A DNA stretch of 64,000 nucleotides from Verrucomicrobiota bacterium (lineage in GTDB: Bacteria > Verrucomicrobiota > Verrucomicrobiia > Palsa-1439). A model generated the notes under the pieces. It did not search any database. It was not told the origin of the DNA and saw only the letters and a list, made by a program, of their open reading frames with translations. The position numbers and the translations under genes were made by a program. This document shows, in pieces, positions 12,998 to 30,748 of the stretch; the first letter of the stretch is position 1; every line of letters begins with the position of its first letter. The DNA is taken from the NCBI GenBank assembly GCA_003152315.1, contig PLZV01000033.1, forward strand, positions 39,689 to 103,688. Reading direction: 5' to 3'.

Positions 12998-13026
12998 TGC
13001 GTGCGGGAAATCTCGCGGAGCCAGTC

Positions 13027-13952
13027 ATGAGAAGAAACAAGCGCGGACCGCCCATGAGCAACCCGTCGTCGATGGGGGAACGTATTAGGCGAAGCAAGTC
13101 GCTGTCACAGAATTTTCTGCGGGACAGTCGGCTGATCGAATCTCTCGTTTTACATTCTGGAATAACGAAGGCGGATACCGTGCTCGACCTTGGCGCTGGC
13201 AAAGGCTCGATCACCCGGGAGCTTGCCAGGCATTGCCGGCGCGTGGTGGCGATTGAAAAGGACCCGGAACTGGTTGGGTTACTGGCACAGGCTATTGGCG
13301 GTTTGACCAACGCCGAATTGATAGCGGGAGACATCCTTCACGTGGAGCTACCCCCTACCCTTACAAGGTATTTGCGAACATCCCCTACAGTTTGACAGCC
13401 GCGATCATTACCATGCTGACCAGTTCGCCACGGTCGCCACTCACAACGCATCTGGTTGTGCAAACTGAAGCCGCGCAAAAATACATGGGTCTGCCGCGCG
13501 AGACGATGTGCGCGCTTTTTTTGAAGCCCTGGTTTCGCGTCAGTATCGCGCATTACTTCAATCGGCAGGATTTTAGCCCGGTTCCCAGTGTGGATTCCGT
13601 TCTCCTGCGGATCGACAAACGTCAGCAGTCGCTGCTGTCGCCTGCCGCACAGACGCTTTACCGTGACTTTGTCGTCTATTGCTTCGTGCATGCCGGACAC
13701 TCGTTGTACGCGACACTGGAGCGGTTCGTGGGACCAAACGTGATGGGGGCCATGGCTTCCACGCTTCATATTTCGCGGTCGGTGACACCGAGCGCTGTGG
13801 ACTTCGAGATTTGGCTCTGCCTGTTCAGTGAGTTTGTCCAGCATGGATCACGATCGGCCCGACAGTTGATCGCCGGTAGTGAATGGCGCCTCAAGCAAGA
13901 GCAGTCACGCCTGCCCAAAGAGTATCATGCCCAGAGGCACAAGCGCTGGTAA
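13027..13952 (+). pseudogene. erm-like: Erm-family rRNA adenine N-6-methyltransferase, single frameshift near 13351-13361
   Basis: SLSQNFLRDSRLIE, VLDLGAGKGSITREL, (frame change) YKVFANIPYSLTAAIITMLTSS, LVVQTEAAQKYMGLP, KPWFRVSIAHYFNRQDFSPVPSVDSVLLRI; halves are in frames 1 and 3. Confidence 0.8.
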
Positions 13953-13985
13953 ACAGCTCCTATATGCAGGCTGATCCGGATATCT

Positions 13986-14457
13986 CTACTGAATGGGGAC
14001 GCATATGTCCGTGAGCGACTCGTCGTTGTCGGGGCCTTTGAAGCGAGCGTCATACCGTTCAAAATCGTATGGGACGGCTTGCTTGTAGCCGCGACCGGGG
14101 CAGCCACTCCCCGTAAATGTATCGAAAGGTTTCCATGATCCGCCCCGGCAGTTTTCCCTTGTGGGTAAAGATTGCGTAGCGGTTGGCGGCCAGGATTTTC
14201 CCAGCGAGTTGGATCGGAATTTCGTCCAGACTCGTGACCTCCACCGCAGCAAGATGGAACCATTTCCTCTGGGTCTCGAACTCGGCGGTGTAGGTCTCGA
14301 CCCCCAGATGGATCCACGGCTCCTTCTTATTCTTGACCTGATCCGCCAAGGAATGAAATAGGGGCCAGGTCGCCGGAATTTCTCCGTTCTTGTTATCTCC
14401 GTAGTACGGCACCCCTACGCACAGAATCTGTGGAAACTGTTCAATCTTCGGCTCCAT
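13986..14457 (-). pseudogene. GyrI-like/AraC effector-binding small-molecule-binding protein, frameshift near 14097-14100
   Basis: N-terminal part in ORF 14059-14457 (...RIMETFRYIYGEWLP), C-terminal part in another frame (GRGYKQAVPYDFERYDARFKGPDNDESLTDICVPIQ). Confidence 0.65.
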
Positions 14458-14693
14458 TGAGCGTTTATAGCATTCTGATCTACAACGCCGACAAGCCTTT
14501 AATTGCGCTGCGCGAATTCGCTACAAACTATTCCCGGAAATAACTTAAGGTAGTTTGAGCCCAACCGATGTCTTTACCGACAAGAGAATGCCTGACTCTC
14601 GTTTCCATGGCATGAGTCATGCGGGTCATTGGAGCAGCTTATGATCACCGCGACGTATATTCATGTAAATGATTGCCAGCGAGGAAGATCGAT

Positions 14694-16847
14694 TTGAAAA
14701 CTCATATAATCCCGAGCAGTGTCGACTTCGCCTTTCCCATCGAATGGACGAATGCGGTGTTAATCCTCGCACTCATGAGCATCTGCATGGTGCTGACGCT
14801 CTTCGCCTACCTTAACCACCGCACCAAGCGGCCGTATTTCAGCCTGTGGATTGTCTCATGGATGTTCTATGCCGGGTATCTGGCGGCGGCCATCGGCTTG
14901 CAGGAATCGCCGGCGTTTCCTTTGCTGGTAATGATGCGCCGGAGCTGCATCGGGTTGAGCGCCTTGTACATGTTCTATGGGAGCTTTTACCTCGCCGGTC
15001 GTCCCCGCTCCCTGCGGGAACTCAAGTTTGCCACCGGGATGCTCGTCGTGTGGAGTGCCGTCGCGGCGTTCGTGGTGCGCGACCGGTTTTGGATCACGAT
15101 GCCGGTCTTCGCACTGTTGGCGGCGGCGGGAATCTACACCGGCATTGCGTACCTGCTCCGGCGGAAGACGTACCACGGGGCGACGATTCTGAGCATTGGG
15201 TTTCTCCTGTGGGGCGCACATCTCGCCGCCTTTCCCTACGCGGAAAGCTCACAACTCCTGACCACTCTCGAATACTTCCTGACGGCGGTGCTGACCATCA
15301 TGATCGCGATCGGCATGATCGTGGAACGCGAGGTGGCGATAGCCGAGCAATCCTACCGGGTCCTGTTCGATTCGGCCTCCGATGCCATTCTCCTGATCGA
15401 CCTGGTACACTATCGCATCGTGGAAGCCAACGGCGCCGCGTTGCGCCTGACCAAACGCTCGGTCCTGGAGCTGGTCGGACGACCGTTTGTCGAACTGTGT
15501 CCGACGCTCCAATCCACGGAGGCGACCAGCGTGCAGATGGACGGCATCAAGTTGTTCAACGCGATATTCCGTCCATTCAACGAAGTCCCCATTGTGCGGG
15601 GTGATGGAACGACGGTGAACTGTGAGGGCGACGCCACACTGGTGCAGTGGCGTCAGCGTTTGGCCCTGCAGGTCAACCTGATGGATGTTAGCGAACGCAA
15701 GAAAGTTGGCGAGCAGTTGCGCCGTGCGGAAAAGCTGTCGGCGCTGGGGCAATTGATTGCCGGCGTGGCGCACGAGTTGAACAATCCGCTGGCGGTGGTC
15801 ATCGGTTACTCGCAGATCCTGGCCGAGAAGAGCGGTTTGGACAAGGAAACCATCGAAGACATCCACCGTATCCATCACGAGAGCGAGCGCGCGTCGCGCA
15901 TCGTTCGCGACCTGCTGTCGTTCGCCCGCCCGTCCGAACCCCAGAAAATTGCGGTGGACATCAATCGTCTCGTAGCGAGCGTGCTGGAAACGCAAGAGGC
16001 GAACCTTCAGGCGGCGGGGATTCAACTGGAACAACAGCTAGCCAACGAGGTGTGCACGACGATGGCCGATCCCAACCAGATCGAACAGGTCCTCGTCAAT
16101 CTGATCGGCAACGCGATTCAGGTACTCAACGGGCGGCCCAAGCCTCGTGCTTTGACCATCCGCACGGAAGCAGCCGGCAATTTTATCCGGATGATCGTGA
16201 CGGACAACGGCCCCGGCATTCCCCGGGAAATCCTTGGCCAGATCTTCGATCCGTTCTTCACCACGAAACCGCTCGGCAAGGGAACGGGATTGGGTCTCAC
16301 GATTTCCAATACCATCATTCAGGAGCACCGCGGCAGGATTCAGGTCGAGAACCAACCGACCGGTGGCGCCAAATTCACCGTGGAACTGCCCGTGGTCCAA
16401 TGCGCCATCGCACCGACGCCGGCTCGACTCCCCTCCGCAATCAAACCGCTGGCCGCAGAGTCCGCCAAGCGGGCCGTACTGGTCGTGGACGATGAACCGA
16501 ACGTCCTGGCTCTGATAAAAAATGTCATGACGCGAAACGGCTACGAGGTGGTCACCGCCACCAACGGCCAGGAAGCCCTGGAGCGCATGGCCGCCCGATC
16601 GTACGACGTGATCCTCTCCGACATGCGCATGCCCGGCATGGATGGCCGGAAGTTGTTCGAGACTGTGAAGAAGCAGGACCCGGCGTTGGCCCACCGCATT
16701 GTGTTCATCACCGGCGACACCGTGAGCGCGGACACACAGGCGTTCTTCGAAGACACGGGAAACCGTTGGCTGAGCAAGCCGTTCCGGATCGCGCAGATCA
16801 CGGATACGGTGAACGAAGTTCTCAAGAAGGAAGCTGTTCCCGTTTAG
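14694..16847 (+). CDS. Hybrid sensor histidine kinase with PAS domain and C-terminal receiver domain
   Basis: 7 hydrophobic segments, PAS region, [18 protein letters not shown]-box, HATPase motifs, receiver [12 protein letters not shown]...[12 protein letters not shown]; likely TTG start at 14694 after GAGGAAG. Confidence 0.9.
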
Positions 16848-16880
16848 ACCCCCTCCGGCGCATTCCGCAGAAATCCATTG

Positions 16881-16915
16881 GCGCAGCGCAAATCGGTGGG
16901 CGGTGAACGTGGGAC
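16881..16915. repeat. HAD-linked dispersed repeat, partial copy E
   Basis: gcgcagcgcaaatcggtgggcggtgaacgtg matches the gcggcgcaaatcggtgggcgctgaatgtg core of full copies. Confidence 0.65.
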
Positions 16916-16922
16916 AGCCGGT

Positions 16923-17609
16923 TTATTCCAGCCATTCGATCAATTCGCGTAGGGAGGCGATTTCGCGGGTGATTTCGGGAGTGGTGGGACGCGGTTTGCG
17001 TGCGGGATTGTACCAACAGGCGTCGATGCCATATTGGACGGCCCCTTGGATGTCCGAGGTCCAACCATCACCAATCATCAGCACTTCGCGCAGGGACGGA
17101 TGTCCCAACCGCGCCAACGCGACGTCGAAAAACTCTTTGGCTGGTTTTGCAAAGCCGATCTCTTCGGAGATGATGATGTCCGCAATGTGATCGTGGATCA
17201 CGGACCGGGCCAGTCGGCCGCGTTGGACCACCTGTAAGCCGTTGGTCAAAATGGCGATTCGATATTTCTCCTGCAACGCCTGCAGCACTTCGCTGGCGTC
17301 TTCGATCAGTTCCGAGCACGCGGCCAGGCACTCGAGATAGTTGGCGCTCAACGCAGCCGCCGAGCTGTCAACTCCGATGGCTTGGAGCAACAGTTCAAAG
17401 CGTTTTATTTTTACGACGCCGGGCGTGATCTCTCCCCTTTCCACCGCTTGCCAGAGAGCCTGGTTGAGGCGCTGGTAGGTAGCCAGATAACCGGGGTCGA
17501 ACGTGACTCCGATCAGCCCGAATGCCTGTTCGAGCGCCGTGCCTTCCGCGCGTTCGAAGTCAAAGAGCGTGCCGTCGGCATCGAACAAGAGCCACTGATA
17601 ACGTTGCAT
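16923..17609 (-). CDS. HAD superfamily hydrolase (YjjG-like nucleotidase)
   Basis: FDADGTLFDFERAEGTAL, ILTNGL, GFAKPAKEFFDVAL, VLMIGDGWTSDIQGA motifs. Confidence 0.9.
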   Translation of the reverse strand: MQRYQWLLFDADGTLFDFERAEGTALEQAFGLIGVTFDPGYLATYQRLNQALWQAVERGEITPGVVKIKRFELLLQAIGVDSSAAALSANYLECLAACSELIEDASEVLQALQEKYRIAILTNGLQVVQRGRLARSVIHDHIADIIISEEIGFAKPAKEFFDVALARLGHPSLREVLMIGDGWTSDIQGAVQYGIDACWYNPARKPRPTTPEITREIASLRELIEWLE

Positions 17610-17765
17610 CGGTGATTGTTAAACGGATTGGCGGGTCAGGTAAAGTCAAAGCGAACCGCGGGTGCTGAGAAGAACGCCCGCTGAGAATATCAGCAACGGC
17701 GCGGCGCAAATCAGTGGGTACTGAATGTGGCGTTAAGAGCGGGGCGTTGAGCCTATTCACACGCT
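17553..17765. repeat. HAD-linked dispersed repeat, copy A (spans the HAD start codon and upstream region)
   Basis: gtcaaagagcgtgccgtcggcatcgaacaagagccactgataacgttgcat...gttaaacggattggcgggtcaggtaaag...gagaatatcagcaa...gcggcgcaaatc. Confidence 0.85.
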
Positions 17766-17768
17766 GGC

Positions 17769-18806
17769 TTACCCTGCGGCGCGGCGGTGCTTCAGCAGTC
17801 GCAATACCGCCGCCTCTTCGGAGCTCAAACCAGTTTGAGTGGTGCGGGACGATTGGTCGACGAACGACTGCGTGAGTGTGCCATGCAAATAGGCGACCAT
17901 GATGGCCGGGTGGACGTAATACTTGCGGCAGACAGCGCGCGTGTTGCCCAACGCTGCGGCCACTTCGTCAATCGCCTTCACGAGTGCCGATTCGGTTGGT
18001 TCTTCGTTGTCGTCCTCATCGAGGCGTTGCAATATCTTCGCCGCCAGAGTGGTCCCGGCCCAGGTTCGAAAGTCTTTCGCGCTGAACTCTTCGCCGGCGA
18101 TTGCGCGCAGATAATCGTTCACATCCTCGGAGGTCATGTTGCGGATTTCGCCGGCGGCGTCGATGTATTGGAACAATTCGTAGCCGGTCAGGTCCTGGCA
18201 GCGTTTGACAATGCGAGCGAGGCGCTTGTTGGTCAAGTCCACCTCGTGAAACTTGCCGCTCTTGCCACGAAACCGAAATTGCAGCCGTTCGCCACGCACC
18301 TCGACATGGCGGTTGCGCATGGTGCTCAATCCAAAGGACTGGTTCTCATCGGCGTACTCCGCGTTGCCGACACGGATATGGGTTCGTTCCAGCAACCGCA
18401 CCACAACCGCGACCACCTTCTCGCGCGGCAATCCGCGTAATCGCAAATCGCGCGCGACTCGTCGGCGAATCTTGGGCAGCGCCTGGCCGAATTCAGTCAG
18501 GCGATGAAACTTGGTCTCCTTGCGAATGGCGTGCCACCGAGGATGGTAGAGATACTGTTTGCGGCCTTTGGCGTCCCGACCGGTGACCTGCAAGTGTCCG
18601 TTCGGATAGGGACAGATCCAGACCTGCTCCCAAGCGGGTGGGATGGTTAGTTCGCGAATGCGTCTTACCTCCTCACGGTTCACCTGTTTTCCATCGGCGG
18701 TGACATAGCGAAAGCCGGTTCCACAACGCTTTCGCTGGAGACCGGGACGTCGGTCAGACATGTAGCGCAACCGACCGTTACGCGCGGGTATCTGTTGGTG
18801 GGTCAT
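17769..18806 (-). CDS. DNA topoisomerase IB (eukaryotic/poxvirus-type)
   Basis: RRIRELTIPPAWEQVWICPYPNGHLQVTGRDAKGRKQYLYHPRW, RLLERTHIRVGNAEYADENQSFGLSTMRNRHV, EFSAKDFRTWAGT. Confidence 0.93.
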   Translation of the reverse strand: MTHQQIPARNGRLRYMSDRRPGLQRKRCGTGFRYVTADGKQVNREEVRRIRELTIPPAWEQVWICPYPNGHLQVTGRDAKGRKQYLYHPRWHAIRKETKFHRLTEFGQALPKIRRRVARDLRLRGLPREKVVAVVVRLLERTHIRVGNAEYADENQSFGLSTMRNRHVEVRGERLQFRFRGKSGKFHEVDLTNKRLARIVKRCQDLTGYELFQYIDAAGEIRNMTSEDVNDYLRAIAGEEFSAKDFRTWAGTTLAAKILQRLDEDDNEEPTESALVKAIDEVAAALGNTRAVCRKYYVHPAIMVAYLHGTLTQSFVDQSSRTTQTGLSSEEAAVLRLLKHRRAAG

Positions 18807-18995
18807 AGTAGGCGGAGTTACTGAACCGTGAGTCCAAGAATGGAGATTTGGCGCGCTACGGGAACACCCTTAATGTCGGTGTGCTTTACTTGAATTCCGT
18901 CGTCGACCATAAGATCGCCGAGCGAGCCCTGCGGTTTGTCTTTTGCAACAATGTCCGCCTCGCCCTGCGTCTTAAAACTCTCCAAGCCACTTTCG

Positions 18996-19121
18996 TTAGC
19001 GAAGCAATAGCACCGCAATAACAATGACGAGAAGCAGGCCGCCACCGCCAATATAGTAGAAGCCGCCCAACACCGGCGAAAACAACAAGCCGGCCAATAC
19101 GGGTGATAATAGAAGGTTCAT
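18996..19121 (-). CDS. 41-aa hydrophobic microprotein (DUF3309-like pattern)
   Basis: Not in supplied ORF track (<60 aa): MNLLLSPVLAGLLFSPVLGGFYYIGGGGLLLVIVIAVLLLR*; AAAGGAAA SD just upstream. Confidence 0.5.
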   Translation of the reverse strand: MNLLLSPVLAGLLFSPVLGGFYYIGGGGLLLVIVIAVLLLR

Positions 19122-19183
19122 GCGTTTCCTTTCAATTCTGACGGCAAATCATTTGCCATCACTTTCTACCGTGATTTTAGGGG

Positions 19184-19272
19184 ATGGGTCGGGCCTTTGG
19201 TATGGGGTGTAACCCTACTATGGATTGGAGGGAGCGCTTTCCGACAAGGACCCGCAACAAGATGACTTTGGT
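19184..19272. repeat. Dispersed repeat X, copy 2
   Basis: atggggtgtaaccctac...gacccgcaacaagatgactttggtg; abuts HAD-linked repeat copy F. Confidence 0.75.
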
Positions 19273-19325
19273 GCGGGGCAAATCGTTGGGCGCTGGACGT
19301 GACGGCGGGAGACTGGTGGTGAGCG
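19271..19325. repeat. HAD-linked dispersed repeat, partial copy F
   Basis: gtgcggggcaaatcgttgggcgctggacgtgacggcggga. Confidence 0.65.
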
Positions 19326-19335
19326 GCCTCGATGA

Positions 19336-19611
19336 CTACCGATTAACAAAGGCAGAAAATGCGAGCGCGGCTCCCGCAATAATCACGCAGAGCACGCCGA
19401 ATAATCGAACCTGTCTGCTGCAATTTCTGCAAACTTTAGAAGGCCACCAGGGAACCCTGGCAATGAGAAGAAAACCAATGTTCCCCAACCAACCAACTGA
19501 ACCTCGCTCGCTATCGGGCTTCTCCCGTCTATAATTGGCGCAAGTAAACATGCTCGAATCCCAGTGCTGTCCTAACGCTCCAAAACTGAGGTGCGCCGTG
19601 ACAAAAGGCAA
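19336..19611 (-). CDS. Small CxxC membrane protein, hypothetical
   Basis: 91 aa; GWLGNIGFLLIARVPWWPSKVCRNCSRQVRLFGVLCVIIAGAALAF; start uncertain. Confidence 0.4.
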   Translation of the reverse strand: MPFVTAHLSFGALGQHWDSSMFTCANYRREKPDSERGSVGWLGNIGFLLIARVPWWPSKVCRNCSRQVRLFGVLCVIIAGAALAFSAFVNR

Positions 19612-19657
19612 GTTCGCAATAGCGGAACCAAAGGCGTAATCGGCGTTGACTCCAGTG

Positions 19658-19927
19658 GCTGGCTAGGCCGTTGGATTACTCGTTCGGCCAGCTACCCAGC
19701 CGACCAATAAGAAGGCGCAGACGAAGAAGCGGCGCACTTTTATGACACCGGGAGTGATCTCTCCCCTTTCCACCGCTTGCCAGAGAGCCTGGTTGAGGCG
19801 CTGGTAGGTAGCCAGATAACCGGGGACGAACGTGACTCCGATCAGCCCGAATGCCTGTTCGAGCGCCGTGCCTTCCGCGCGTTCGAAGTCAAAGAGCGTG
19901 CCGTCGGCATGGAACAAGAGCCACTCT
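19658..19927 (-). pseudogene. Chimeric ORF: HAD hydrolase N-terminus fused to 3' end of the 12398-12625 gene
   Basis: ORF 19663-19917 = DGTLFDFERAEGTALEQAFGLIGVTFVPGYLATYQRLNQALWQAVERGEITPG + FFVCAFLLVGWVAGRTSNPTA. Confidence 0.85.
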
Positions 19928-19957
19928 GCTAACGACCCGACACTAATTCCTGCTTGT

Positions 19958-22138
19958 TTACTTCACAGGCTGGAAGTCTTTGTGCCCCGTCTGCCAGAGG
20001 AGGAAGGCGGATTGGCCCGCGAAGTTTTTGAAGGTGACATTCTTCTCCTCCGTGAAGTGGCCGTTGTCGTAGTTCACCTTCATCAGAATGGGATTGCCCG
20101 AGGCCGTTGCGGCCTGCAAGGCAGCCACGAACTTGCCAGGTTCCCAGGCTGTGACTCGGGGATCATTCCAGCCACCCACACCCATAACCGCCGGGTACTT
20201 CACACCATTCTGGACGTGCTGGACCCCATCCATCTCGAACAGGGCCTGGCACTCAACGGGGTCTTTCACGGTGCCAAATTCCGGCGTGTTGACCGGACCA
20301 TTGGGCGAGAACTCCAGTCGCATCGCGTTCGCGCACCCGACGTTGCAAACGGCGGCAGCAAATAAATCCGGGCGTTCCGTGATGGCACGGCTGATCAGGA
20401 TTCCGCCAGCGCTGGTGCCGGTTCCGGCGAGCTTCTGGGGACTGGTATATCCCTTCTTTACGAGGTACTCCGCGCAGGAAATGAAGTCCTTCCAGGTGTT
20501 GGGCTTGGTCGTCTTGTAACCGGCCTTGTACCAGGCCTCGCCCTTTTCGCCACCGCCCCGGGGGTGCGCGATGGCAAGCACCACACCTCGGAGTGCCACT
20601 GAATTGCGAATACTGAAGTTCGGAGTGGCACTGCTCCCATAAGCGCCATAGCCAGTGAGGATACAGCAGTTTGACCCGTCCAGCGGAATACCCTTCTTGT
20701 AAATGATGGAGAGCGGGATCAGGGTGCCGTCGTGACCGGGCGCTTCAACTTCTTCGGAGACGAGGTTCTCAAAGCCGGGATACGAGACATCCGCATTGAA
20801 AATGCTCTTTGCGAAGGTGTCCTTCTGCGCATCGAAATCATAGATCGTCAAGGGAGAGATCCAGGAGGTGATAGACACCAGGCAACGATCCGTTTTCCAA
20901 TCCGGACAACTGACGTTCACGGTCCCGGATGCCGGGAGTTTGATCTCGGCGGTCTTGCCGGTGGTGAGGTCATATTTCACGAGGCGACAGACAACCCCAT
21001 TGGAGTACACGATGAGGAGGTAGTGCTTGCTCTTCGTGAAGTACCGGATGGTGTCAGCCCCCTCGGGAACCACGGTCTCGGCGTGTTCCCAGTCAGGATG
21101 CTTTACGTCTGTTCGAACAACCTTGTACTTTGGCGCACCCGTATGGGTGACGGCATAGACGTGATCCCGGTAGAACGCGAACCCTCGGACCAGATTGTCC
21201 GGGCGTTTACACAGGACATCCCATTTGATTTTCGTGTGCTTCAGTTCGGAGATGGGAGCATAGAAAATCCGCAGCTCGCTTTGTACGGTTTCCGCGGATC
21301 CGACCATGTAGTCGGGGTATGATTCATCAACGGAAGCACCCGGAATCTCCTTGGCGGTGATCCCCAGTTCAGGGTTGCTCTCGTTGCTGAAGATATCGAC
21401 GTCCGTGCTGGCCTCGGTGCCGAGCCTGTGCACTTTGGTTTTGCGGTTCAGTTCGATTTCGAGACTCTTGATGTCAGCAACCTTGCCAGCGTCATAGAAT
21501 AGAGACTTGTTGTCCCTCATCCACCCATGGGGCCCGTAGGAAGGGTAGATGCTCTCAGGCAGCAGGGTTCCCCGTTCCACGTCCAATACACGGATCTCCG
21601 ACCATTCAGCGCCGCCCGAAGAAAGCCCCATGGCGACGTATTTCCCGTCCCACGAAGGGACTATGCTTTGGATGGTCGTGGTCACTCCGGTTTTATACGT
21701 GGCGGGATCGAAAAGCAGTTTTTCCGTCCCATTCCAACCTTGACGACAATAGAGTTTGCCCACGTTTTCGCCACCCAGAGTCTTCTTGTAGAAGACGCGG
21801 CCGTGTTCATACCGGATTCCCGAGTACTCCGCGGGTTTGAGTTTGTCCAACGCCAGCCATTCCTGCACCAGCGCATCCCTTCCCGGAATCTTTGCGAGCA
21901 GGCCATCCGTCAATTCCGCCTGGGCCTTGAACCAGGCATCGACATCCGTATCCTTCAGGTTCTCCAGCCAGCGGTAAGGATCATTGTAGGTCTTCCCAAA
22001 GTAGGTGTCCGACGCATCGACGGTCTTTGTCGGAGGATAGTTCCACTGGGCATGGCATGGCATGACAGCCAGGACTGGAAGGACGAAAAAAAGGAATCTC
22101 TTCATGATTGATAGTATTACCTTTGACAATGCCGACAA
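19958..22138 (-). CDS. Prolyl oligopeptidase family serine peptidase (S9A)
   Basis: YPPTKTVDASDTYFGKTYNDPYRWLENL, GYGAYGSSATPNFS, GTGTSAGGILI catalytic Ser, DNGHF catalytic His region. Confidence 0.93.
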   Translation of the reverse strand: MSALSKVILSIMKRFLFFVLPVLAVMPCHAQWNYPPTKTVDASDTYFGKTYNDPYRWLENLKDTDVDAWFKAQAELTDGLLAKIPGRDALVQEWLALDKLKPAEYSGIRYEHGRVFYKKTLGGENVGKLYCRQGWNGTEKLLFDPATYKTGVTTTIQSIVPSWDGKYVAMGLSSGGAEWSEIRVLDVERGTLLPESIYPSYGPHGWMRDNKSLFYDAGKVADIKSLEIELNRKTKVHRLGTEASTDVDIFSNESNPELGITAKEIPGASVDESYPDYMVGSAETVQSELRIFYAPISELKHTKIKWDVLCKRPDNLVRGFAFYRDHVYAVTHTGAPKYKVVRTDVKHPDWEHAETVVPEGADTIRYFTKSKHYLLIVYSNGVVCRLVKYDLTTGKTAEIKLPASGTVNVSCPDWKTDRCLVSITSWISPLTIYDFDAQKDTFAKSIFNADVSYPGFENLVSEEVEAPGHDGTLIPLSIIYKKGIPLDGSNCCILTGYGAYGSSATPNFSIRNSVALRGVVLAIAHPRGGGEKGEAWYKAGYKTTKPNTWKDFISCAEYLVKKGYTSPQKLAGTGTSAGGILISRAITERPDLFAAAVCNVGCANAMRLEFSPNGPVNTPEFGTVKDPVECQALFEMDGVQHVQNGVKYPAVMGVGGWNDPRVTAWEPGKFVAALQAATASGNPILMKVNYDNGHFTEEKNVTFKNFAGQSAFLLWQTGHKDFQPVK

Positions 22139-22148
22139 GCCCTTTTTG

Positions 22149-22382
22149 CGGGATTTTCCGCCCAGTCGAAGTCAAAGGGCGTGCCGTCGGCATCGAACAA
22201 GAGCCACTGATAACGTTGCATCAATGAATGATTGTTAAACGGATTGGCAGGTCAGGTAAAGGCAAGACGGAGCTTGGGTGGTGGGATAGAGTCTCCACCG
22301 AGAATATCAGCAATGGTGCGGCGCAAATCGGTGGGCGCTGAATGTGACGGCGGGAGTCAGGCGGTGAACCTGTTCACAAACC
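22149..22382. repeat. HAD-linked dispersed repeat, copy C
   Basis: gcgggattttccgcccagtcgaagtcaaagggcgtgccgtcggcatcgaacaagagccactgataacgttgcat...gttaaacggattggcaggtcaggtaaag. Confidence 0.85.
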
Positions 22383-22466
22383 GGGTTTGACTTCTCCTGG
22401 CGGGATCGTTCGAAAAACTTTCTGGCCAGTCAACGGTCACGCGGTATAGGCTCGCATCTCAGGCCG

Positions 22467-24044
22467 TTGAGAACAGAAACGTCATCAGATCAAAACCACT
22501 ACGACGCCATTGTCATCGGCTCCGGCATGGGCGGCCTTTCCGCCGCGAGTCTTCTGGTTCAGGAAAAGAAGTATCGAGTGCTCGTTCTGGAAAGGCATTT
22601 CAAGACAGGAGGATTCACCCACGCTTTTTCCCGGCCTGGCGGATATACCTGGGATGTTGGCCTCCACTATGTTGGGCAAATGGCCCCAGGCGATCAGATG
22701 AGAAACGCGTTTGACTATCTGACTCAAGGCAAAGTGAAGTGGAATCCGATGAAAGATCCATTCGAGATCTTTAGTTATCCGGGCTTTCAATTTGCTGTGA
22801 GTTCTGACTCCAGAGCCTATGAACAAGATCTCATCGCTTGTTTCCCTGAAGAAGACCGTGCCATTCAACGGTATTTTAAGGACATTAAATCAATTTCCCG
22901 ATACATGGTATCGCTCTTGTTGCCGAGGGTGCTGAGGCTCTTACTGTCCCCTATTTTCTTCCGCACTTCCCGTCTGGCAAAGCAAAGCCTTAGATCCGTG
23001 TTGGACAACAATTTCAAAGACCCTCGCCTCAAAGCGGTGCTGGCAAGTCAATGGGGGGATTATGGGCTTCCGCCTGGTCAAAGTTCATTTTTCATTCATG
23101 CAGTCATTGCCGAGCATTATCTGAACGGTGGATTTTACCCCGAGGGTGGCGCAGCAACGATTGCCAAATCGATTCAAGAGATTGTGGAATCCCGGTCCGG
23201 CCGATTTCTGCTGAACCACGAGGTCTCCGAGATTTTACTTGAGGGTCGAAAAGCCATCGGAGTCCGCGTTCGTTTAACAAATGGATCGACTGAAACCTAC
23301 TACGCCCCCGAGATCTATTCCGATGCAGGGGCTCAAACGACTTTCCTTAAACTATTGCCACCGGCGGTGGGATTGTCCTTCCGGAAAGAGCTCGAGGATG
23401 AAAAGCCCGGGTCCTCGTGTGTCACTCTTTATCTCGGACTAAAACACGATCCTTCTTCCCTTGGAATCCACGGGCAAAATTTCTGGATATACAGTGGCTG
23501 GGACCACGATGATACTTTTCGGAAGCGCAACGAGGTCGTTGATGGAAGGCCAAGCAGTTGCTATCTTTCATTCCCATCCAAGAAAGATCCGAAAGCCGTC
23601 TTTCATACGGCGGAGATCATCGCCCTTGTCGATTATGAGCCCTTCAAGCGGTGGACGGATTTGCCATGGAAAAACCGAAGTTCAGAATATGAAGAGCTGA
23701 AGAAGAAAATCTCGAAAGGCCTCGTTCAGTTGGTGGACAGTCAAGTGCCGGGGTTCTCCTCGAATATTGCTTATCAAGAGCTATCCACTCCGCTCACAGT
23801 TGAGCATTTCACCGGACACCCAAGAGGACAGATTTACGGATTTCCCGCCACGCCGGAACGACTCAGAAAGAATTATCTGACGGCACGAACTCCTATTGAG
23901 AATCTGTACCTGGTTGGTGCCGATGTCGGCGGGCATGGGATTGTGGGGGCAATGGTCGGTGGAATTCTTGGCGTCGCCGCCAAGCACGGGTTTTCACTTC
24001 TTTGGCGCGTGATGCGTGGCAAAATGCATCAAACGACTACCTGA
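22467..24044 (+). CDS. FAD-dependent phytoene desaturase/retinol saturase-like oxidoreductase
   Basis: YDAIVIGSGMGGLSAASLL dinucleotide-binding motif; GYTWDVGLHYVGQM; C-term NLYLVGADVGGHGIVGAMVGGI. Confidence 0.85.
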   Translation: MRTETSSDQNHYDAIVIGSGMGGLSAASLLVQEKKYRVLVLERHFKTGGFTHAFSRPGGYTWDVGLHYVGQMAPGDQMRNAFDYLTQGKVKWNPMKDPFEIFSYPGFQFAVSSDSRAYEQDLIACFPEEDRAIQRYFKDIKSISRYMVSLLLPRVLRLLLSPIFFRTSRLAKQSLRSVLDNNFKDPRLKAVLASQWGDYGLPPGQSSFFIHAVIAEHYLNGGFYPEGGAATIAKSIQEIVESRSGRFLLNHEVSEILLEGRKAIGVRVRLTNGSTETYYAPEIYSDAGAQTTFLKLLPPAVGLSFRKELEDEKPGSSCVTLYLGLKHDPSSLGIHGQNFWIYSGWDHDDTFRKRNEVVDGRPSSCYLSFPSKKDPKAVFHTAEIIALVDYEPFKRWTDLPWKNRSSEYEELKKKISKGLVQLVDSQVPGFSSNIAYQELSTPLTVEHFTGHPRGQIYGFPATPERLRKNYLTARTPIENLYLVGADVGGHGIVGAMVGGILGVAAKHGFSLLWRVMRGKMHQTTT

Positions 24045-24047
24045 AGC

Positions 24048-24092
24048 TCAGGTAAGGTCAAAGCGAACCTCGGGTGGTGAGGAGAGCCTCTA
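24048..24092. repeat. HAD-linked dispersed repeat, partial copy H
   Basis: tcaggtaaggtcaaagcgaacctcgggtggtgaggag. Confidence 0.6.
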
Positions 24093-24146
24093 CTGCGTCA
24101 ACCAAATGCAGAATGAAGAGATGTGACGCCAAAGTCCCATTTGTAG

Positions 24147-24446
24147 TCAGGGTATGCTGACCAAAGGAGACGCGACGATGACGGCAGATGCCTCGGGCAC
24201 GGACTCGGTTTCATCGGCGAATTCGTACCCGAGCTTGCCCTCGCTGATTTCCTTCAGCGCGATATCGGAGAACTCCATCCACGCAGCCGTCTGCGTGAGA
24301 GCGCGATGCCCCTGCACGAGTTGGCGGACACGCCTTCTTACCACATTGATAAGCAACTCGGGGCTGGGAATGCGTAGCAGCGCAGCCTCCAAGAAGGTAT
24401 TTTTGATCCGTAAAGGGAGTTTGACTGGCACGGAAACCGGTTCCAT
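24147..24446 (-). CDS. RNA polymerase omega subunit (RpoZ)-like protein
   Basis: LLINVVRRRVRQLVQGHRALTQ...DIALKEISEGKLGYEF resembles the RpoZ core. Confidence 0.6.
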   Translation of the reverse strand: MEPVSVPVKLPLRIKNTFLEAALLRIPSPELLINVVRRRVRQLVQGHRALTQTAAWMEFSDIALKEISEGKLGYEFADETESVPEASAVIVASPLVSIP

Positions 24447-24663
24447 AGAGAAGCCTTCTTTTACTTTCTGCCACGAACCTTGGGCGGCCTAATCGACCGC
24501 CCCCAACTCATGGCGTGGTTTGAACAGTTAACGAAATGTCACGGTACAGCCTTTGGCGGTCAGCAACAAGCACACAATGAGTCAAGATACGCCTTGTCGT
24601 ACAATGACCACCATGGGGTAAACACCCCATGGCGTCCCGCCGCTGGTTTACGTAGTTTGGAGC

Positions 24664-24870
24664 GTGACTGAAATAAAGGGCACCAAGCCCGCCTCTGAAA
24701 TTAGCCCGAAACGAAGCCCTGAAGAGCGCAACATCCGCAAACAGCTCGGCAAGGTGCGCCGCTATCTCGCCGCATCGACGAATCCCAATATGCGGAATTC
24801 ATGGGAAAGCAAAATCGTGATCTATAAAGCGCAACTGGTAAAGGCTGAGGCCCGCGCTCGGTTCGGGTAG
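24664..24870 (+). CDS. Hypothetical small basic protein
   Basis: 68 aa, GTG start; no family recognised. Confidence 0.3.
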   Translation: MTEIKGTKPASEISPKRSPEERNIRKQLGKVRRYLAASTNPNMRNSWESKIVIYKAQLVKAEARARFG

Positions 24871-25657
24871 GCATTCGACGCGGCTGGCGCATGGTGCGGT
24901 GGTCTGAAATGGTTGGAACGGCTCGGCGACGCCTGGCTCAAGCTCCTCGTTTTTGAGCCTGCTTACCGAAGCGCTGAAAAAACAGCTTTTCGTATTGCTT
25001 CTTCCAGGACTGTGGAGGCGCCAGGCAAATGTTGTCCTTCCGGACAAACGCGCAGACCCCCGGAAGGGAATGCTTGGCACAAACGCTTGGATTTGTATGA
25101 CGACAACCGTGAGTTTGGTTTTCGCTGTCGAGCGGATGTAGCAGGGCGTGAAAAGCCAGCTTTTGGTCTTTCTTGACAAGATGTTCAATCATTCAATCAC
25201 TTCTTCTGTATTAGCCCGTTGATGTGACCATTGTACCCGTCTTTCCAACTGTTGGCAATGCGCGCCCCATATTGCCGCCGTTGTCTCGCCGAGTATGCTG
25301 GCGGTTGCATTCCCTGGATCAAGGCGTAGAATTGCAGTGGAGAGCCGAGCCGTTCTCTCAGTACGTTGTTTAGGGGATCAATCCCCCCCTGCGTCATCCT
25401 GATGATGCATGGACTGCTGATGACAAGCCTCGACTCTCCTCTTGTTTGACCCCTGATCCCCGCCGCCGAGACTGCCAGGAAACTATCGGTTGCTATTCCC
25501 CCAATCAGGCTTATATTGCAGCGGAGAGTCGAGGGCAAGTTGAAGTTGCGGCGTAGAGCAGAGCAGTTCGAGCCTCGACTCTCCAATTTTTTACTGCCGT
25601 CGAAATCTCCCGCCGCCTGAACCCTCAACAAATCCGGCTCAATCCCTCCACTTTTTC

Positions 25658-25885
25658 CGGGATTTTCCGCGCGGTCGAAGTCAAAGAGCGTGCCGTCGGC
25701 ATCGGGCACGAGGCGCTGGAAACGGTGTATTGGTGAGTGAGAAACGGATTGGCGGGCCGAGTGAAGTTGAATCGGAGCTCGGGTGGTGGGAAGAATCTCC
25801 GCCGAGAACATCAGCAATGGCGCGGTGTAAATCGGTGAGCGCGGAATGTGACATTAAGAGGCGGGAGGCGGGCCGGTTCATTGCG
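25658..25885. repeat. HAD-linked dispersed repeat, copy D
   Basis: cgggattttccgcgcggtcgaagtcaaagagcgtgccgtcggcatcg...gaaacggattggcgggccg...gagaacatcagcaatggcgcgg. Confidence 0.85.
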
Positions 25886-25955
25886 CGAATTGACAGAATG
25901 CAGGTAGCAGGACTACCCTCCGCTAAGGTAACTCGTCTTTGCCGAAAGGAACGAT

Positions 25956-27278
25956 ATGTCTCACACGACGCGATATGAGCTAATTGACCACGCACATGGT
26001 GAAGGTGCATTCGGGAAAATTCAGAAGCGACGAGACACACTCCTTGAGCGATTCGTAGCCGTAAAGACGCTGAAGCTATTCAAAGACGCAGGCGATCGGC
26101 AGCGCTTTATCAATGAGGCGAAAACCCTTGCGCGAATGTCCCATCCGAATGTTCCGGCAATTTATGACGTAGAGTTTCTTGATGAGGAGATGAGTATCTA
26201 TTTCGAATATATTGATGGCAACAATGTCCGCCATGCCATTAACGAAAAAAGGATTCCGACAGTAGAGCATGCTCGTCGATGGTTTACCCAGATAGCCTCC
26301 GCGCTATCGCATGCCCACAGCCTTGGAATTATCCATCGCGACATTAAGCCGGACAACATCGTCATTTCCCCGGATAATATGGCAGCAACACTGGTGGATT
26401 TTGGGATTGCCCTAACTAGCGCCGACGCTAAACGACTTACAGGAAGCGGATACGTTATCGGAACACCGACCTACATGTCGCCAGAGCAAGCAGAGGGCTT
26501 GGATTTAGACGGTCGCTCTGACCTGTACTCGCTAGGTATCACTCTTTACGAAACTCTAGCGGGGCACCTACCTCATCCTGGTGACTACAATGATTTGTCC
26601 GATTTGAATGAGGCTATACCTCCAGCGGTTGATGAATTGATAAAGAAATGCCTCATTAAGGATAGAACCCATCGCATAGCTTCTGCGGAGATTTTCGCTG
26701 ATGCACTTCGAGCCAGCATTCGCACTGATGTTCCTCTTTCGAGCCTCCTGACAGATGCACGTCTGCATGAAATACTCGCCGCACTTGCTCAACTTTCAGC
26801 AGAAGACTTCCATGGCAAACCCCGCGGACAGCGCCTGCTGATAATAAATCGGTTGAAGGATCTTGTACGCACCGACAGGCAAGAGCTGCGCACCGCCACT
26901 GGCGATCTCATCGTACATCTTCTTCGGCTGGCAACATTGGAGCCGCCTTCAGATTTTCAACCAGTTGTTGAATTTGCTTTTTTGTGGGGCTTCGACAAAG
27001 TCTTTACGGAGAGCTGGCAGGGCGATCAGGATGTTCGTGACATGTTGGCTGAAACCGCAAAAACTGCAAACATGGATGCACACGAAGTCATATCTTCCGT
27101 GTATTTGCGCCACGTGAAGGAAAAGAACCTGGCAGAGCTTCCCGGGGGATGGTATCACCACGACTTGCGAAGGATCATTGTTGCGCTTCTGGCCAATCCG
27201 AATTGTGGAGACATCGCAGGTGATCTCGCCGCGTTTTACAACAAATTGAACGAGGAAACCCACAAGGCTAGCGGTTGA
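25956..27278 (+). CDS. Serine/threonine protein kinase (Pkn-type) with uncharacterised C-terminal region
   Basis: VAVKTLK, HRDIKPDNIVIS, LVDFGIAL, GTPTYMSPEQAEG, DLYSLGITLYETLAG; no TM segment evident. Confidence 0.92.
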   Translation: MSHTTRYELIDHAHGEGAFGKIQKRRDTLLERFVAVKTLKLFKDAGDRQRFINEAKTLARMSHPNVPAIYDVEFLDEEMSIYFEYIDGNNVRHAINEKRIPTVEHARRWFTQIASALSHAHSLGIIHRDIKPDNIVISPDNMAATLVDFGIALTSADAKRLTGSGYVIGTPTYMSPEQAEGLDLDGRSDLYSLGITLYETLAGHLPHPGDYNDLSDLNEAIPPAVDELIKKCLIKDRTHRIASAEIFADALRASIRTDVPLSSLLTDARLHEILAALAQLSAEDFHGKPRGQRLLIINRLKDLVRTDRQELRTATGDLIVHLLRLATLEPPSDFQPVVEFAFLWGFDKVFTESWQGDQDVRDMLAETAKTANMDAHEVISSVYLRHVKEKNLAELPGGWYHHDLRRIIVALLANPNCGDIAGDLAAFYNKLNEETHKASG

Positions 27279-27336
27279 GCGATTTCTCACTTCATCAATT
27301 GCAGTCTATTGGCAGCACCAAAACCGGAGCCACTGA

Positions 27337-27858
27337 ATTAGGATAACCAGTCCTCTCATACTCGGCGGACCTTCGGGAGTCGGGAAGACAAGCTTCTGCA
27401 AATTCCTTGAAGGAACCGGGTGGTTGTATCTGGAGGCTGACCAATATCCAAAAGACGGAATAAATGAATTGGGCCTCCGCTTTTCATGGGATCTGTTTTG
27501 GAATAATCACGATCCACATAATCTTGCAGGGGAACTCGTAGACCGGCGCACTACAGGCCAGAATGGGGGCGTTGTACTGTCTCTGCCCAGTCTGGCCATC
27601 GCAGGAGAAAGGCATCTTGCTGCAGCCAAGAATATCCTGACAATCCGGTTTTTATGGGGCGATCCTAAGTTCTGTCTGAATTCCTTTCTTGAAAGGGAAC
27701 AGAGAGATGGTCGCCATTTCGATGCCGTCCACTGGCATAAGAACAATGATGGGGCTTTCGACATTCTTTCCAAGTCCCTATACGCACCATACCGGCGTGT
27801 CGTATTCGCATCTGACGGAAAACGAATACGGTGGGAAGACGTACTTCAAAAGCTGTGA
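27337..27858 (+). CDS. P-loop NTPase/kinase-like protein (AAA_33/zeta-like), start codon unclear
   Basis: Frame open upstream of the supplied TTG start: IRITSPLILGGPSGVGKTSFCKFLEGTGWLYLEADQYPKDG; Walker A GGPSGVGKTS lies upstream of 27424. Confidence 0.65.
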   Translation: MRITSPLILGGPSGVGKTSFCKFLEGTGWLYLEADQYPKDGINELGLRFSWDLFWNNHDPHNLAGELVDRRTTGQNGGVVLSLPSLAIAGERHLAAAKNILTIRFLWGDPKFCLNSFLEREQRDGRHFDAVHWHKNNDGAFDILSKSLYAPYRRVVFASDGKRIRWEDVLQKL

Positions 27859-27947
27859 GCCACCGCCGCAGGCCGATCTCACGGTTGTCGACCACCCATG
27901 CGGAAGGATGCGTCCCGTAAATAGTAAAGCGTTGACCCCCGTTAATT

Positions 27948-28010
27948 GATAAACGGATTGGCGAGCGTTGAACATGACCTCAAGAGTCAGGAATTGACGC
28001 TGTTCACCAG
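27948..28010. repeat. HAD-linked dispersed repeat, internally deleted copy G
   Basis: gataaacggattggcgagcgttgaacatgacctcaagagtcagg...ctgttcacc. Confidence 0.6.
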
Positions 28011-29539
28011 TGATCGCCACATGGGGTTTCTTGGAAGCAGAGACTCTCAACAAAACTCTCTAGTTTGAATTGTGCGAGTGTGTTGTTCACAACGATTTCA
28101 GCGGTGTGTTCGACGGCCTGCATTTCCGAGCGAATTGCCTCCCGGCCGTGCCGAGCCATCATGGGCCCTAGTAGCTTTGTGACGTCTGCTGTCTCATCCG
28201 AGGGTGAAGCTTCGCGCATTAGCTTGGCGGCAAGAAGTAGACTGGCAACTGCCTCTGTGGTGCCATCATGCGCATCAAAATGGTCGGCCATCGCGCGAAG
28301 CGCTGCCGCTTGGCGCGAACGGTCAGGAATCGCTCGGGCGATCAAAAATGCCTTGGCTAGACATTCGTGGCCAAAAGAACAGTCTGCTCCTGAAGCAGTA
28401 GTTCCAATAGTTTCATGTCCTAGCTCCATGAATGCAGTGCACATGCAAAATGGACAGCTCGGAGCGTCCTTGCGAAGGTTGGCGACGGACCTGAGAAGCC
28501 AGCGCTTGGCGCGCTTATGGTCGTTTACCCATCGATAATATCTGCCCACTGTTACGGCTGCTTCGGCTTTGTTGTGGGTGTTACCGGTCTTTCGCGCACA
28601 CCGCAACATTTTCTTTAAGGATTGAAGTGCGTGCCGGTCACAGTGGCCGGAGACGGCCAAGGTGGCCCAACGCCTAGCGATGTGAAACTCGTAGACTGTA
28701 ATGGACGCCTTCTCAACAAGCAAATTGGCTTCATCGAACGCGGCTCTCCCTACGAGAGAATATGGATTGGAGTCATGCAGTTCCATCAGAAGCCTGACTC
28801 GCAGGGTCGGGTCTGTGATCTTGGAAGGAGGAGTGAGACTGGGTAACTCAAGAAGTTCGGCCAACATTTCTGGATAAAGCGCGAGAACCCCAAGGCGTCT
28901 CAAGTCCTTCTGTGTTGAGCAATCGATGAGAAAATGCGCGGCCTCAGTGTAATGTTGGTGCTGTACGAATGTGTAGAAGCGAGCAAGTGTGTCAATAGTG
29001 GATCCACCGCCGCGCTGTTCAGCTACGGCTACTACATTCGGCAATAAAAAGAACCATTTTGCCAAGTCCCGCAAGACATGTCCGCGCAGTTCCTCGGGGG
29101 ATGCAAAAGCATCTCGTTTCTTTTGCTTATCAATTTTTTCTTTAAAAGCCTTCAGGGAAGAAACTTTGGGCGGGTCAAGGTCGATATTTTCCACAAGCAT
29201 AAGGGCTTTGTCGGATTTTAAATAGCAGAGTTGGTACTTGCTGTGTTTGGACGCCTCATCGTACTCAAGTTCAGTAAATGAAAGTCCGGATTTGGTTATA
29301 GAGCCGTACTTCATGCCAACCACTGTGACGACTAAATCGCAATGGCGAACTTCATCGAGGCAGACCTCTAAAGGAGGGTGGGTGCTCGCTCCGGTAATCA
29401 GGTCAACAGGCACGACGGCTAGGCCAAGATGATTGATGACAATGTTCAGGTCAGAGATGGCATGGAGTACCGCTTGGCGTTCCGGTCTTAAATCTTCAAA
29501 AGTTGAGGAAACGAGTACGCGATATACAGGATGGGGCAT
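28004..29539 (-). CDS. DUF4062 domain protein with long helical C-terminal region
   Basis: YRVLVSSTFEDLRPERQAVLHAI...VPVDLITG...CLDEVRHCDLVVTVVGMKYGS...SFTELEYDEA is the DUF4062 pattern. Confidence 0.85.
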   Translation of the reverse strand: MPHPVYRVLVSSTFEDLRPERQAVLHAISDLNIVINHLGLAVVPVDLITGASTHPPLEVCLDEVRHCDLVVTVVGMKYGSITKSGLSFTELEYDEASKHSKYQLCYLKSDKALMLVENIDLDPPKVSSLKAFKEKIDKQKKRDAFASPEELRGHVLRDLAKWFFLLPNVVAVAEQRGGGSTIDTLARFYTFVQHQHYTEAAHFLIDCSTQKDLRRLGVLALYPEMLAELLELPSLTPPSKITDPTLRVRLLMELHDSNPYSLVGRAAFDEANLLVEKASITVYEFHIARRWATLAVSGHCDRHALQSLKKMLRCARKTGNTHNKAEAAVTVGRYYRWVNDHKRAKRWLLRSVANLRKDAPSCPFCMCTAFMELGHETIGTTASGADCSFGHECLAKAFLIARAIPDRSRQAAALRAMADHFDAHDGTTEAVASLLLAAKLMREASPSDETADVTKLLGPMMARHGREAIRSEMQAVEHTAEIVVNNTLAQFKLESFVESLCFQETPCGDHW

Positions 29540-30048
29540 GACCTAGAAGTCGAATAGCATAGTATCGAGATGCATGCAATCGTGAAACTGCAGCACTGAG
29601 CGCTTTGGGGAAAGATTGGATGTCACTGAGGAGTCTAGAGCGCCGTGACTACAACGGGGGGAATAGGACGATTATACCGGATGGGACGGATGGGGCTGGG
29701 GCAGTTTAGGTCGGTGGTTTGGAGGATTCTCGCAATAGAGATTTTTTTTGTTTCCGCTCTGGACATCGTATTCCGATAGTGGTATGATGCGGGAATGAAC
29801 AAATTAACGTTCAACATGAAACGCTCAACCCCGAAAAGGATTCGGGGCAGGCCGTCCAACGTTCATCCGCCTTCGCCAAGGCTTCCGCCGTCGCTGGAGC
29901 TATGGCGGACAAGTCGGCGGACTCGCTGCTGTGCGCAGCTCGGGGCGGCACGGCGACAGAGTCCCGGTCTCGGAACCGTGGATGCCGCCGAATGGCGGCA
30001 CGCCGTGGCTACAGGGGACAAGGGTTGAAAGAGATGTGCCATTCTACG

Positions 30049-30164
30049 AAACGAACCCATTTCGTTTTCGAGGAATTATTCATGCATCCTAGCAATGCAG
30101 AGCAACTTATGACGTTTGCAGAGTCGTTTGCAAATGGGTTCGTTTTCCAGAACGAACCCATTTT
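30049..30164. repeat. Composite inverted-repeat element, unit 1
   Basis: AAACGAACCCATTT (30049-30062), 69-nt spacer, AAATGGGTTCGTTT (30132-30145), then local palindrome to 30164. Confidence 0.85.
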
Positions 30165-30190
30165 GAGGGGGTATGAGGTCACAAATGGAG

Positions 30191-30282
30191 ACCTGCGGTC
30201 GAATTAAAGTGCGCGGTCGGGAGACCGGCGCACAACCGGGGCGATTTCGGCGCGGCGGCAACCGGGCCGGTTGCCCTACAAT
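30191..30282. repeat. Double-hairpin repeat, copy 1
   Basis: gtgcgcggtcgggagaccggcgcac and ggcaacc-gggcc-ggttgcc; near copy at 30607-30692. Confidence 0.8.
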
Positions 30283-30315
30283 GGGAGCCAAAGGGGGCCC
30301 CTATATGTTTTTGCG

Positions 30316-30431
30316 AAACGAACCCACCGTTTTTTGAAGGATTTTCCTATGGAAGTAGCTATGAATAAACGCGTTAGGGAAGAAACAGACGAGGGAAATC
30401 GGTGGGTTCGTTTTGGAAAACGAACCCACCG
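30316..30431. repeat. Composite inverted-repeat element, unit 2
   Basis: AAACGAACCCACCG (30316-30329), 70-nt spacer, CGGTGGGTTCGTTTTGGAAAACGAACCCACCG (30400-30431). Confidence 0.88.
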
Positions 30432-30606
30432 GGAGGGGTTTTTAAGAGGGCCGGAAGCGATATTTGGCGGAAAATGGACCTGAAATGAGAAGCAGAAGAG
30501 ATCGGGAGAGCGGTTCACGGCGGAGATTCCTCGACAAGTCCCGCAATCCTGCGGGATCCCGTCGCACGACGGGACTCGGAACGACGGGCTTAGCGATCGA
30601 CAGAGG

Positions 30607-30692
30607 AGACCTTCGGTCCAATGAAGTGCGCGGTCGGGAGACCGGCGCACAACGGAGGCACGGCGGCAACCGGGCCGGTTGCCCTACAATCG
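30607..30692. repeat. Double-hairpin repeat, copy 2
   Basis: gtgcgcggtcgggagaccggcgcacaac...ggcaaccgggccggttgccctacaat. Confidence 0.8.
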
Positions 30693-30748
30693 GACTTTGG
30701 CAAGACGGCAAACGGGACGTTCGCCCTACGAATCCAATAACAGGCGGG

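What the first reader, a model, noticed from the sequence alone, without database searches (positions are those of the whole stretch)
16881..28010. Repeat-bounded gene island: eight degenerate copies of one HAD-linked repeat separate unrelated single genes
Seen directly: copies E (16881), A (17553-17765), F (19271), B (19737-19927), C (22149-22382), H (24048), D (25658-25885) and G (27948) share segments such as gtcaaagagcgtgccgtcggcatcg, taaacggattggcgggtcaggtaaag, gagaatatcagcaatggcgcggcgcaaatcggtgggcgctgaatgtgac. Copies sit at gene boundaries: E-HAD-A-topoisomerase IB-F/B-prolyl oligopeptidase-C-FAD desaturase-like-H-(rpoZ-like and small ORFs)-D-Ser/Thr kinase+NTPase-G-DUF4062. The unit contains the 5' end of the HAD hydrolase gene (MQRYQWLLFDADGTLFDF) plus about 170 bp upstream, so only copy A is attached to an intact HAD gene. 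The island looks modular, like gene cassettes, but with no integrase or attC consensus. Possible meanings: homologous-recombination hotspots for cassette exchange, a non-autonomous element, or serial duplication relics.
Basis: partly seen in the sequence, partly recalled or inferred. Interest (0 to 1): 0.78.

Follow-up and report, generated by a model that had tools for sequence, protein, structure and literature searches.

The report
Gene-exchange hotspot with HAD-fragment repeats
In a Verrucomicrobia-type genome, short broken copies of one enzyme gene's start, joined to a sequence resembling the end of a known mobile element, mark the edges of four blocks of genes that a sister species lacks at this locus; it looks like a patchwork recombination hotspot, not a new gene-cassette machine.

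Summary
The repeats are real. Eight copies lie at 16862-28006, four long (A, B, C, D) and four fragments (E, F, G, H). They are not genome-wide: models find two more outside the island in the 4.9-Mb genome and one in sister species G002. The repeat is a mosaic of three pieces: the first 66-188 bp of the HAD hydrolase gene; about 70 bp from upstream of it; and an ~80-bp palindromic core. The core's right end resembles the terminal repeat of TIR-associated tyrosine transposases (TIRYT/RAYT, Y1 family), which flanks intact transposase genes in this genome and in G001. In G002 the order is SDR-HAD-POP-rpoZ-D-ADA. The window adds four blocks: RsmA-like/histidine kinase, topoisomerase IB, FAD oxidoreductase, and Ser/Thr kinase/NTPase/DUF4062. 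Six of eight block edges fall in repeat copies (circular-shift p about 0.001). The FAD, kinase and DUF4062 genes have foreign GC3. Copy B is the decayed native HAD 5' end beside POP; topoisomerase IB sits inside a recent 188-bp duplication. No integron integrase above cut-off and no attC motif was found. Best reading: a recombination hotspot seeded by old local duplications and a decayed TIR element, acquiring genes by homologous or illegitimate recombination, not a new cassette system.

The parts
16862..16925 (+). Copy E: core fragment (GGCGCAGCGCAAATCGGTGGGCGGTGAACGTG) between convergent histidine kinase and HAD stop codons
   Evidence: model R1 E 1.1e-10, training row
16923..17609 (-). Intact HAD-family hydrolase gene (228 aa); 87% aa identity to the orthologue in G002
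   Evidence: PF00702 5.7e-22
17544..17770 (+). Copy A: HAD start + ~70-bp upstream segment (L) + ~80-bp core, ending at the topoisomerase stop codon
17769..18806 (-). DNA topoisomerase IB; in G002 it lies elsewhere (C41:81764-82811), on the other strand
   Evidence: PF01028 1.1e-40
19250..19340 (+). Copy F: core only, abutting the stop codon of a small minus-strand ORF (19336-19611)
   Evidence: R1 E 1.3e-17, training row
19727..19925 (+). Copy B: decayed native HAD 5' end beside POP, start codon lost; right arm of the 188-bp direct repeat enclosing the topoisomerase block
   Evidence: 183/188 to A; 87.2% to G002
19958..22138 (-). Prolyl oligopeptidase (S9); shared backbone gene, HAD-POP adjacency conserved in G002
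22142..22387 (+). Copy C: HAD start + L + core; left edge of the FAD block
22467..24044 (+). FAD oxidoreductase (phytoene-desaturase/carotenoid-isomerase-like), GC3 0.53; no match in G001 or G002
24045..24132 (+). Copy H: partial L segment plus native rpoZ downstream flank; right edge of the FAD block (about 45-bp direct repeat of L with copy C)
25651..25891 (+). Copy D: HAD start + L + core; the matching G002 site (C41:88918-89053) has HAD start + L but not the core
25956..27278 (+). Ser/Thr protein kinase (closest PADLOC model PD-T4-6), GC3 0.49
27917..27940 (+). TIRYT-terminal-repeat-like sequence GTAAATAGTAAAGCGTTGACCCCC (3 mismatches in 22)
   Evidence: none at 3 or fewer mismatches in 20 shuffles of 64 kb
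27945..28006 (+). Copy G: L fused by internal deletion to the core's right half; overlaps the DUF4062 stop codon
   Evidence: (R2 E 1.4e-9, training row)
28004..29539 (-). DUF4062 protein, GC3 0.52; a match in only 2 of 145 class genomes at E<=1e-10, own included

Best explanation
The region is a lineage-specific recombination hotspot. Step 1 (shown by comparison; order inferred): before the split from sister species G002, the first ~66 bp of the HAD gene plus ~70 bp upstream (L) had been copied to the POP/rpoZ gap and to position D. Step 2 (shown in sequence; mobility inferred): an ~80-bp palindromic core, whose right end matches TIRYT terminal repeats, became joined to L and is now next to each window-specific block. 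Step 3 (inferred from junctions): DNA blocks entered at these short repeats by homologous or microhomology-driven recombination. For the topoisomerase block the signature is a 188-bp direct repeat of the HAD 5' end (97.3%), as a single-crossover integration or tandem duplication would leave. For the FAD block it is a ~45-bp direct repeat of L. The FAD, kinase and DUF4062 genes are low-GC acquisitions. The repeats are therefore scars and substrates of recombination; no dedicated recombinase need be assumed.
For: Synteny with G002: window 19727-22177 aligns in one piece to G002:C41:85235-87695, so B is the native HAD/POP junction and the topoisomerase block is extra. Six of eight block edges fall within 10 bp of a repeat copy, circular-shift p 0.001. 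Unit copies diverge star-like (A-C 82%, A-D 77%, A-G2D 84%, D-G2D 78%), so they are old; A-B is 97.3% against 87-89% to G002, so that one is recent. The L-plus-core joint in A, C and D is replaced in G002-D by the rpoZ-side flank. TIRYT link: core consensus GTCAAGAGTCAGGCGGTGAGCC matches 19 of 22 to the ends that flank a Y1 transposase gene in G001:C34; the ends at G000:C49 and C57 differ from those by one base. Copies C2, C1, G and G2topo match those ends better than all or nearly all of 1000 shuffles. GC3 0.47-0.53 for FAD, kinase, NTPase and DUF4062 against 0.69-0.87.
Against: Only one relative shares the locus, so polarity (gain in the window or loss in G002) is not fixed; the FAD gap in G002 could be a single deletion between two GTCAAAG microhomologies. 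Repeat copies at the edges of inserted DNA may be part of that DNA, which inflates the edge association. Copies D, E and F do not match the TIRYT end by themselves. No repeat copy is at the far edges 12686 and 29640, and other synteny breaks in the window (9957-11558, after 33911) have none. No reads or strains were available.
Confidence: 0.58

Rival explanations
1. The array is ancestral and G002 has lost the blocks by deletions between repeats; the repeats are deletion substrates, not entry sites.
For: The G002 POP/rpoZ gap reads as copy-C left end joined to copy-H right end at a shared GTCAAAG, so one deletion would remove the FAD block. Unit copies are older than or as old as the species split. 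G002 is smaller (3.8 against 4.9 Mb).
Against: FAD, kinase and DUF4062 have foreign GC3, and FAD and DUF4062 have no match in either genus relative; the 188-bp repeat around the topoisomerase is younger than the split; the topoisomerase is present in G002 at another place.
Confidence: 0.2
2. TIRYT (Y1/HUH transposase) activity moves the unit: one end fixed at the TIR-like core, the other end variable, dragging the HAD start and neighbouring genes (one-ended transposition).
For: The right end of the unit is constant and TIR-like while left ends vary; intact Y1 transposase genes with matching ends exist in the genome; a near-perfect TIR lies at 27917; the core is also found at two unlinked sites, each next to a stop codon.
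Against: The core is low-copy (about 8); no copy has two inverted TIRs around a block; direct repeats of 45 and 188 bp around the blocks are not a Y1 signature; D, E and F lack a recognisable TIR.
Confidence: 0.15
3. The island is an integron-like cassette array with the core as an attC-like site.
For: In six copies (E, A, F, G, C2, C1) the core's right end lies within about 20 bp of the stop codon of an opposite-strand gene, as attC sites do; CCACCGA...TCGGTGG arms with some compensatory change.
Against: No integron integrase above cut-off (own best 92 bits against 265); no RYYYAAC...GTTRRRY pair in any copy; in C and D the gene points the other way; REP repeats are also known to abut stop codons (PMC3733652).
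Confidence: 0.04

Closest known systems
TIR repeats of TIRYT elements (TIR-associated tyrosine transposases; PMC3733652; probably subclass 2.1 of PMC6006769)
   Same: Y1_Tnp genes flanked by inverted ends GGGGTCAASSCTTGACTCTTGACA in this genus; ends close to the published GGGGWSAS motif (7 of 8); solitary end copies; stop-codon adjacency as reported for REPs.
   Different: The island core is only partly TIR-like, has about 8 copies, is clustered in one 11-kb region and is fused to fragments of a host gene.
REP/BIME repeats with RAYT transposases (PMC2817692)
   Same: Extragenic palindromic repeats, often at gene 3' ends; related Y1 transposase (NF047646 E 1.5e-18, below its curated cut-off).
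   Different: No GTAG/GTGG head, low copy number, no high-abundance dispersed family.
Integron gene-cassette arrays
   Same: Unrelated genes separated by related short repeats, most next to stop codons.
   Different: No IntI above cut-off, no attC core motifs, mixed gene orientation, backbone genes inside the array.
Single-crossover (Campbell-type) integration or tandem-duplication relics
   Same: Topoisomerase block flanked by a 188-bp direct repeat of the HAD 5' end; FAD block by a ~45-bp repeat.
   Different: The donor circle or duplicated source was not found.

Membership tests
Integron cassette array | Integron integrase IntI (TIGR02249) in the genome | tested here: not met
   best own hit 92 bits, Xer-like, cut-off 265; genome 95.8% complete. 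Related genera G003 and G004 do have IntI
Integron cassette array | attC inverse core/core sites RYYYAAC...GTTRRRY | tested here: not met
   no such pair in any of 8 copies on either strand
TIRYT terminal repeat (TIR) family | Repeat matches the inverted ends of a Y1 transposase gene of the same lineage | tested here: inconclusive
   consensus 19 of 22; C2, C1, G, G2topo beyond all or nearly all of 1000 shuffles, C p 0.004, A p 0.013; D, E, F not; a 3-mismatch copy at 27917
TIRYT terminal repeat (TIR) family | Cleavage or mobilisation by the transposase | not testable with these tools
   needs biochemistry
REP (GTAG-tagged) element | GTAG or GTGG head next to a short hairpin, high copy number | tested here: not met
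   about 8 copies; no conserved GTAG or GTGG head in the core alignments
Known Rfam RNA | Match to a covariance model | tested here: not met
   none at E<=0.5 in 10000-32000
Plasmid- or phage-borne repeat | Copy C present in plasmid or phage records | tested here: not met
   no match

The most novel reading that the evidence does not exclude
A gene-acquisition site without an integron integrase: a TIR-like palindrome placed just after stop codons acts as a reusable junction at which new one- to few-gene blocks are joined, with single strands processed by a Y1 (TIRYT) transposase and fixed by short-homology recombination, giving cassette-like arrays.
Probability: 0.08. Interest if true: 0.75.

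Novelty: new variant of a known kind. Interest (0 to 1): 0.36.

Why it matters
It shows at base resolution how a bacterial genome can build a cassette-looking array without an integron: fragments of one host gene and a decayed mobile-element end mark the places where gene blocks differ between sister species. If the TIRYT link were proved, it would give these little-studied Y1 transposases a role in gene acquisition. As it stands it is a well-documented case of a recombination hotspot, and a caution against reading repeat-separated genes as cassettes.

Tried and rejected
Genome-wide intergenic family: rejected, only 2 unlinked copies in the genome. Integron: rejected. Rfam RNA: none. Plasmid or phage origin of the repeat: no match. 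Ancestral context of HAD in other Limisphaerales/Verrucomicrobia MAGs (L088-L091): HAD present at 66-76% aa, but no convincing copy of L, core or neighbouring window genes, so no help with polarity. Conserved hairpin CCACCGA..TCGGTGG: 5 of 15 predicted pairs show two-sided changes, but from only 6 sequences, too few to claim an RNA or single-strand structure. Intrinsic terminators in the copies: one weak site in A on the minus strand; the region has no excess.
Full report
Observation. Pairwise BLAST between A, B, C and D gives E from 1e-42 to 1e-86; the shorter copies E, F and H match at 86-89% over 36-54 bp. Scanning the window with the 36-bp C core returns only A, C, D, E and F above 22 of 36 matches. 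G is weak by BLAST but is placed by a model of the core's right half (G is one of that model's training rows).

The unit is a mosaic. In the orientation of the window it consists of the reversed 5' end of the HAD gene (66 bp in C and D, 188 bp in B), then ~70 bp (L) from upstream of HAD, then an ~80-bp core beginning CCACCGAGAATATC and ending GTGAACCTG. A, C and D have all three; B has HAD only; E and F have only the core; H has only L; G has L fused to the right half of the core by an internal deletion. The core alone also occurs at G000:C2:14862-14956 and, weaker, G000:C1:35978-36037, after the stop codons of a PEP-CTERM-like ORF and an ECF-sigma-like ORF. There is no wider family in the genome, so 'genome-wide intergenic repeat' is excluded.

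Comparison with a sister species. The genus holds three genomes here. No HAD or POP orthologue was found in G001. G002 has the locus at about 86% nucleotide identity. Its order is SDR-HAD-POP-rpoZ-D copy-ADA. The window aligns to it in blocks: 11558-12686, 16930-17609, 19727-22177, 24073-24864, 25490-25793, 30749-33911. What lies between is window-specific at this locus: 12687-16930 (RsmA-like fragments, a histidine kinase), 17610-19726 (topoisomerase IB and small ORFs), 22178-24064 (FAD oxidoreductase), 25794-29640 (Ser/Thr kinase, P-loop protein, DUF4062). Six of these eight edges lie within 10 bp of a repeat copy; under circular shift of the repeat map p is 0.001. Copies at block edges can be part of the block, so this measures association, not cause.

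Junctions. Window 19727-22177 aligns through the HAD/POP joint of G002, so B is the native HAD 5' end; it has lost its start codon. HAD with A is the working copy. Topoisomerase IB, resident in G002 at 81764-82811 on the other strand, is enclosed by a 188-bp direct repeat of the HAD 5' end, 97.3% identical where both arms are 87-89% to G002, so this duplication is younger than the species split unless gene conversion has kept the arms alike. The FAD gene is enclosed by a ~45-bp direct repeat of L (C against H). The G002 POP/rpoZ gap is a C-left/H-right fusion at GTCAAAG, and G002's D has HAD start and L but the rpoZ-side flank in place of the core. Unit copies diverge star-like (77-84%), D being no closer to its positional counterpart in G002 than to A: the first duplications are old.

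Mobile-element link. Weak relatives of the core's right half in G001, G005 and G009 share sequences like GGGTCAACGCYTGACTCTTGACG. A pattern search finds this end in G000 (4) and G001 (5) against 0-1 for the reversed control. At G001:C34, G000:C49 and G000:C57 it flanks, in inverted orientation, a Y1 transposase gene (G001:C34 protein: PF01797 1.4e-15; NF047646 REP_Tyr_transpos 1.5e-18, below its cut-off). This is the layout described as TIRYT/TIRtron with a GGGGWSAS motif (PMC3733652; PMC6006769). The core consensus matches that end at 19 of 22; C2, C1, G and G2topo beat all or nearly all of 1000 shuffles, C p 0.004, A p 0.013, while D, E and F do not. A 3-mismatch copy lies at 27917-27938 beside G. 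I read the core as a decayed TIR-type element; that it was ever moved by a TIRYT is inference.

Genes. FAD, kinase, P-loop and DUF4062 genes have GC3 0.47-0.53 against 0.69-0.87 for neighbours; FAD and DUF4062 have no match in G001 or G002 and are rare in the class. They are probably acquired. Topoisomerase and histidine kinase are native in composition; the histidine kinase has an 87% paralogue at G000:C30 whose match ends within ~45 bp of the gene.

Known systems. The array resembles integron cassettes in layout: in six copies the core's right end lies within about 20 bp of a stop codon. But no integrase reaches the family cut-off in this 95.8%-complete genome and no copy has attC core sites, so it is not filed there. 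REP repeats are also reported to abut stop codons (PMC3733652), so the adjacency does not call for a cassette system.

Conclusion. The best-supported account is a recombination hotspot made of old local duplications of the HAD 5' region and a decayed TIR-type element, at which gene blocks were gained, moved or lost. Polarity of the FAD and kinase blocks, and any part played by the transposase, remain open; more genomes of this genus would settle the first.

Noticed in passing
window 14629-16860: Histidine kinase gene has an 87% paralogue at G000:C30:93158-95389 (orthologue at G001:C102); the match covers the gene plus about 45 bp before and 13 bp after it, as if moved as a single gene.
   Followed up: partly
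window 29640-30700, 36230-36430, 55700-55860: A separate, highly dispersed intergenic repeat family (CGTTTTGGAAAACGAACCCA-type palindromes) with dozens of copies in G000 and G002.
   Followed up: no
window 25490-25593: Another dispersed repeat (GAGAGTCGAGG...CCTCGACTCTCC), up to 91% identical to copies in G001 and G002.
   Followed up: no
G000:C34:24648-24934 (L156 2648-2934): Degenerate copy of the topoisomerase block: its last 114 bp joined to 18974-19167; its edge at window 17770 coincides with the end of copy A.
   Followed up: partly
window 25956-29539: Ser/Thr kinase (PD-T4-6-like), P-loop protein and DUF4062/TPR protein, low GC: possible defence-type acquisition.
   Followed up: partly
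G003:C1, G004:C233, G011:C3, G014:C23: Related genomes of the same family or class do carry integron integrases above cut-off.
   Followed up: no
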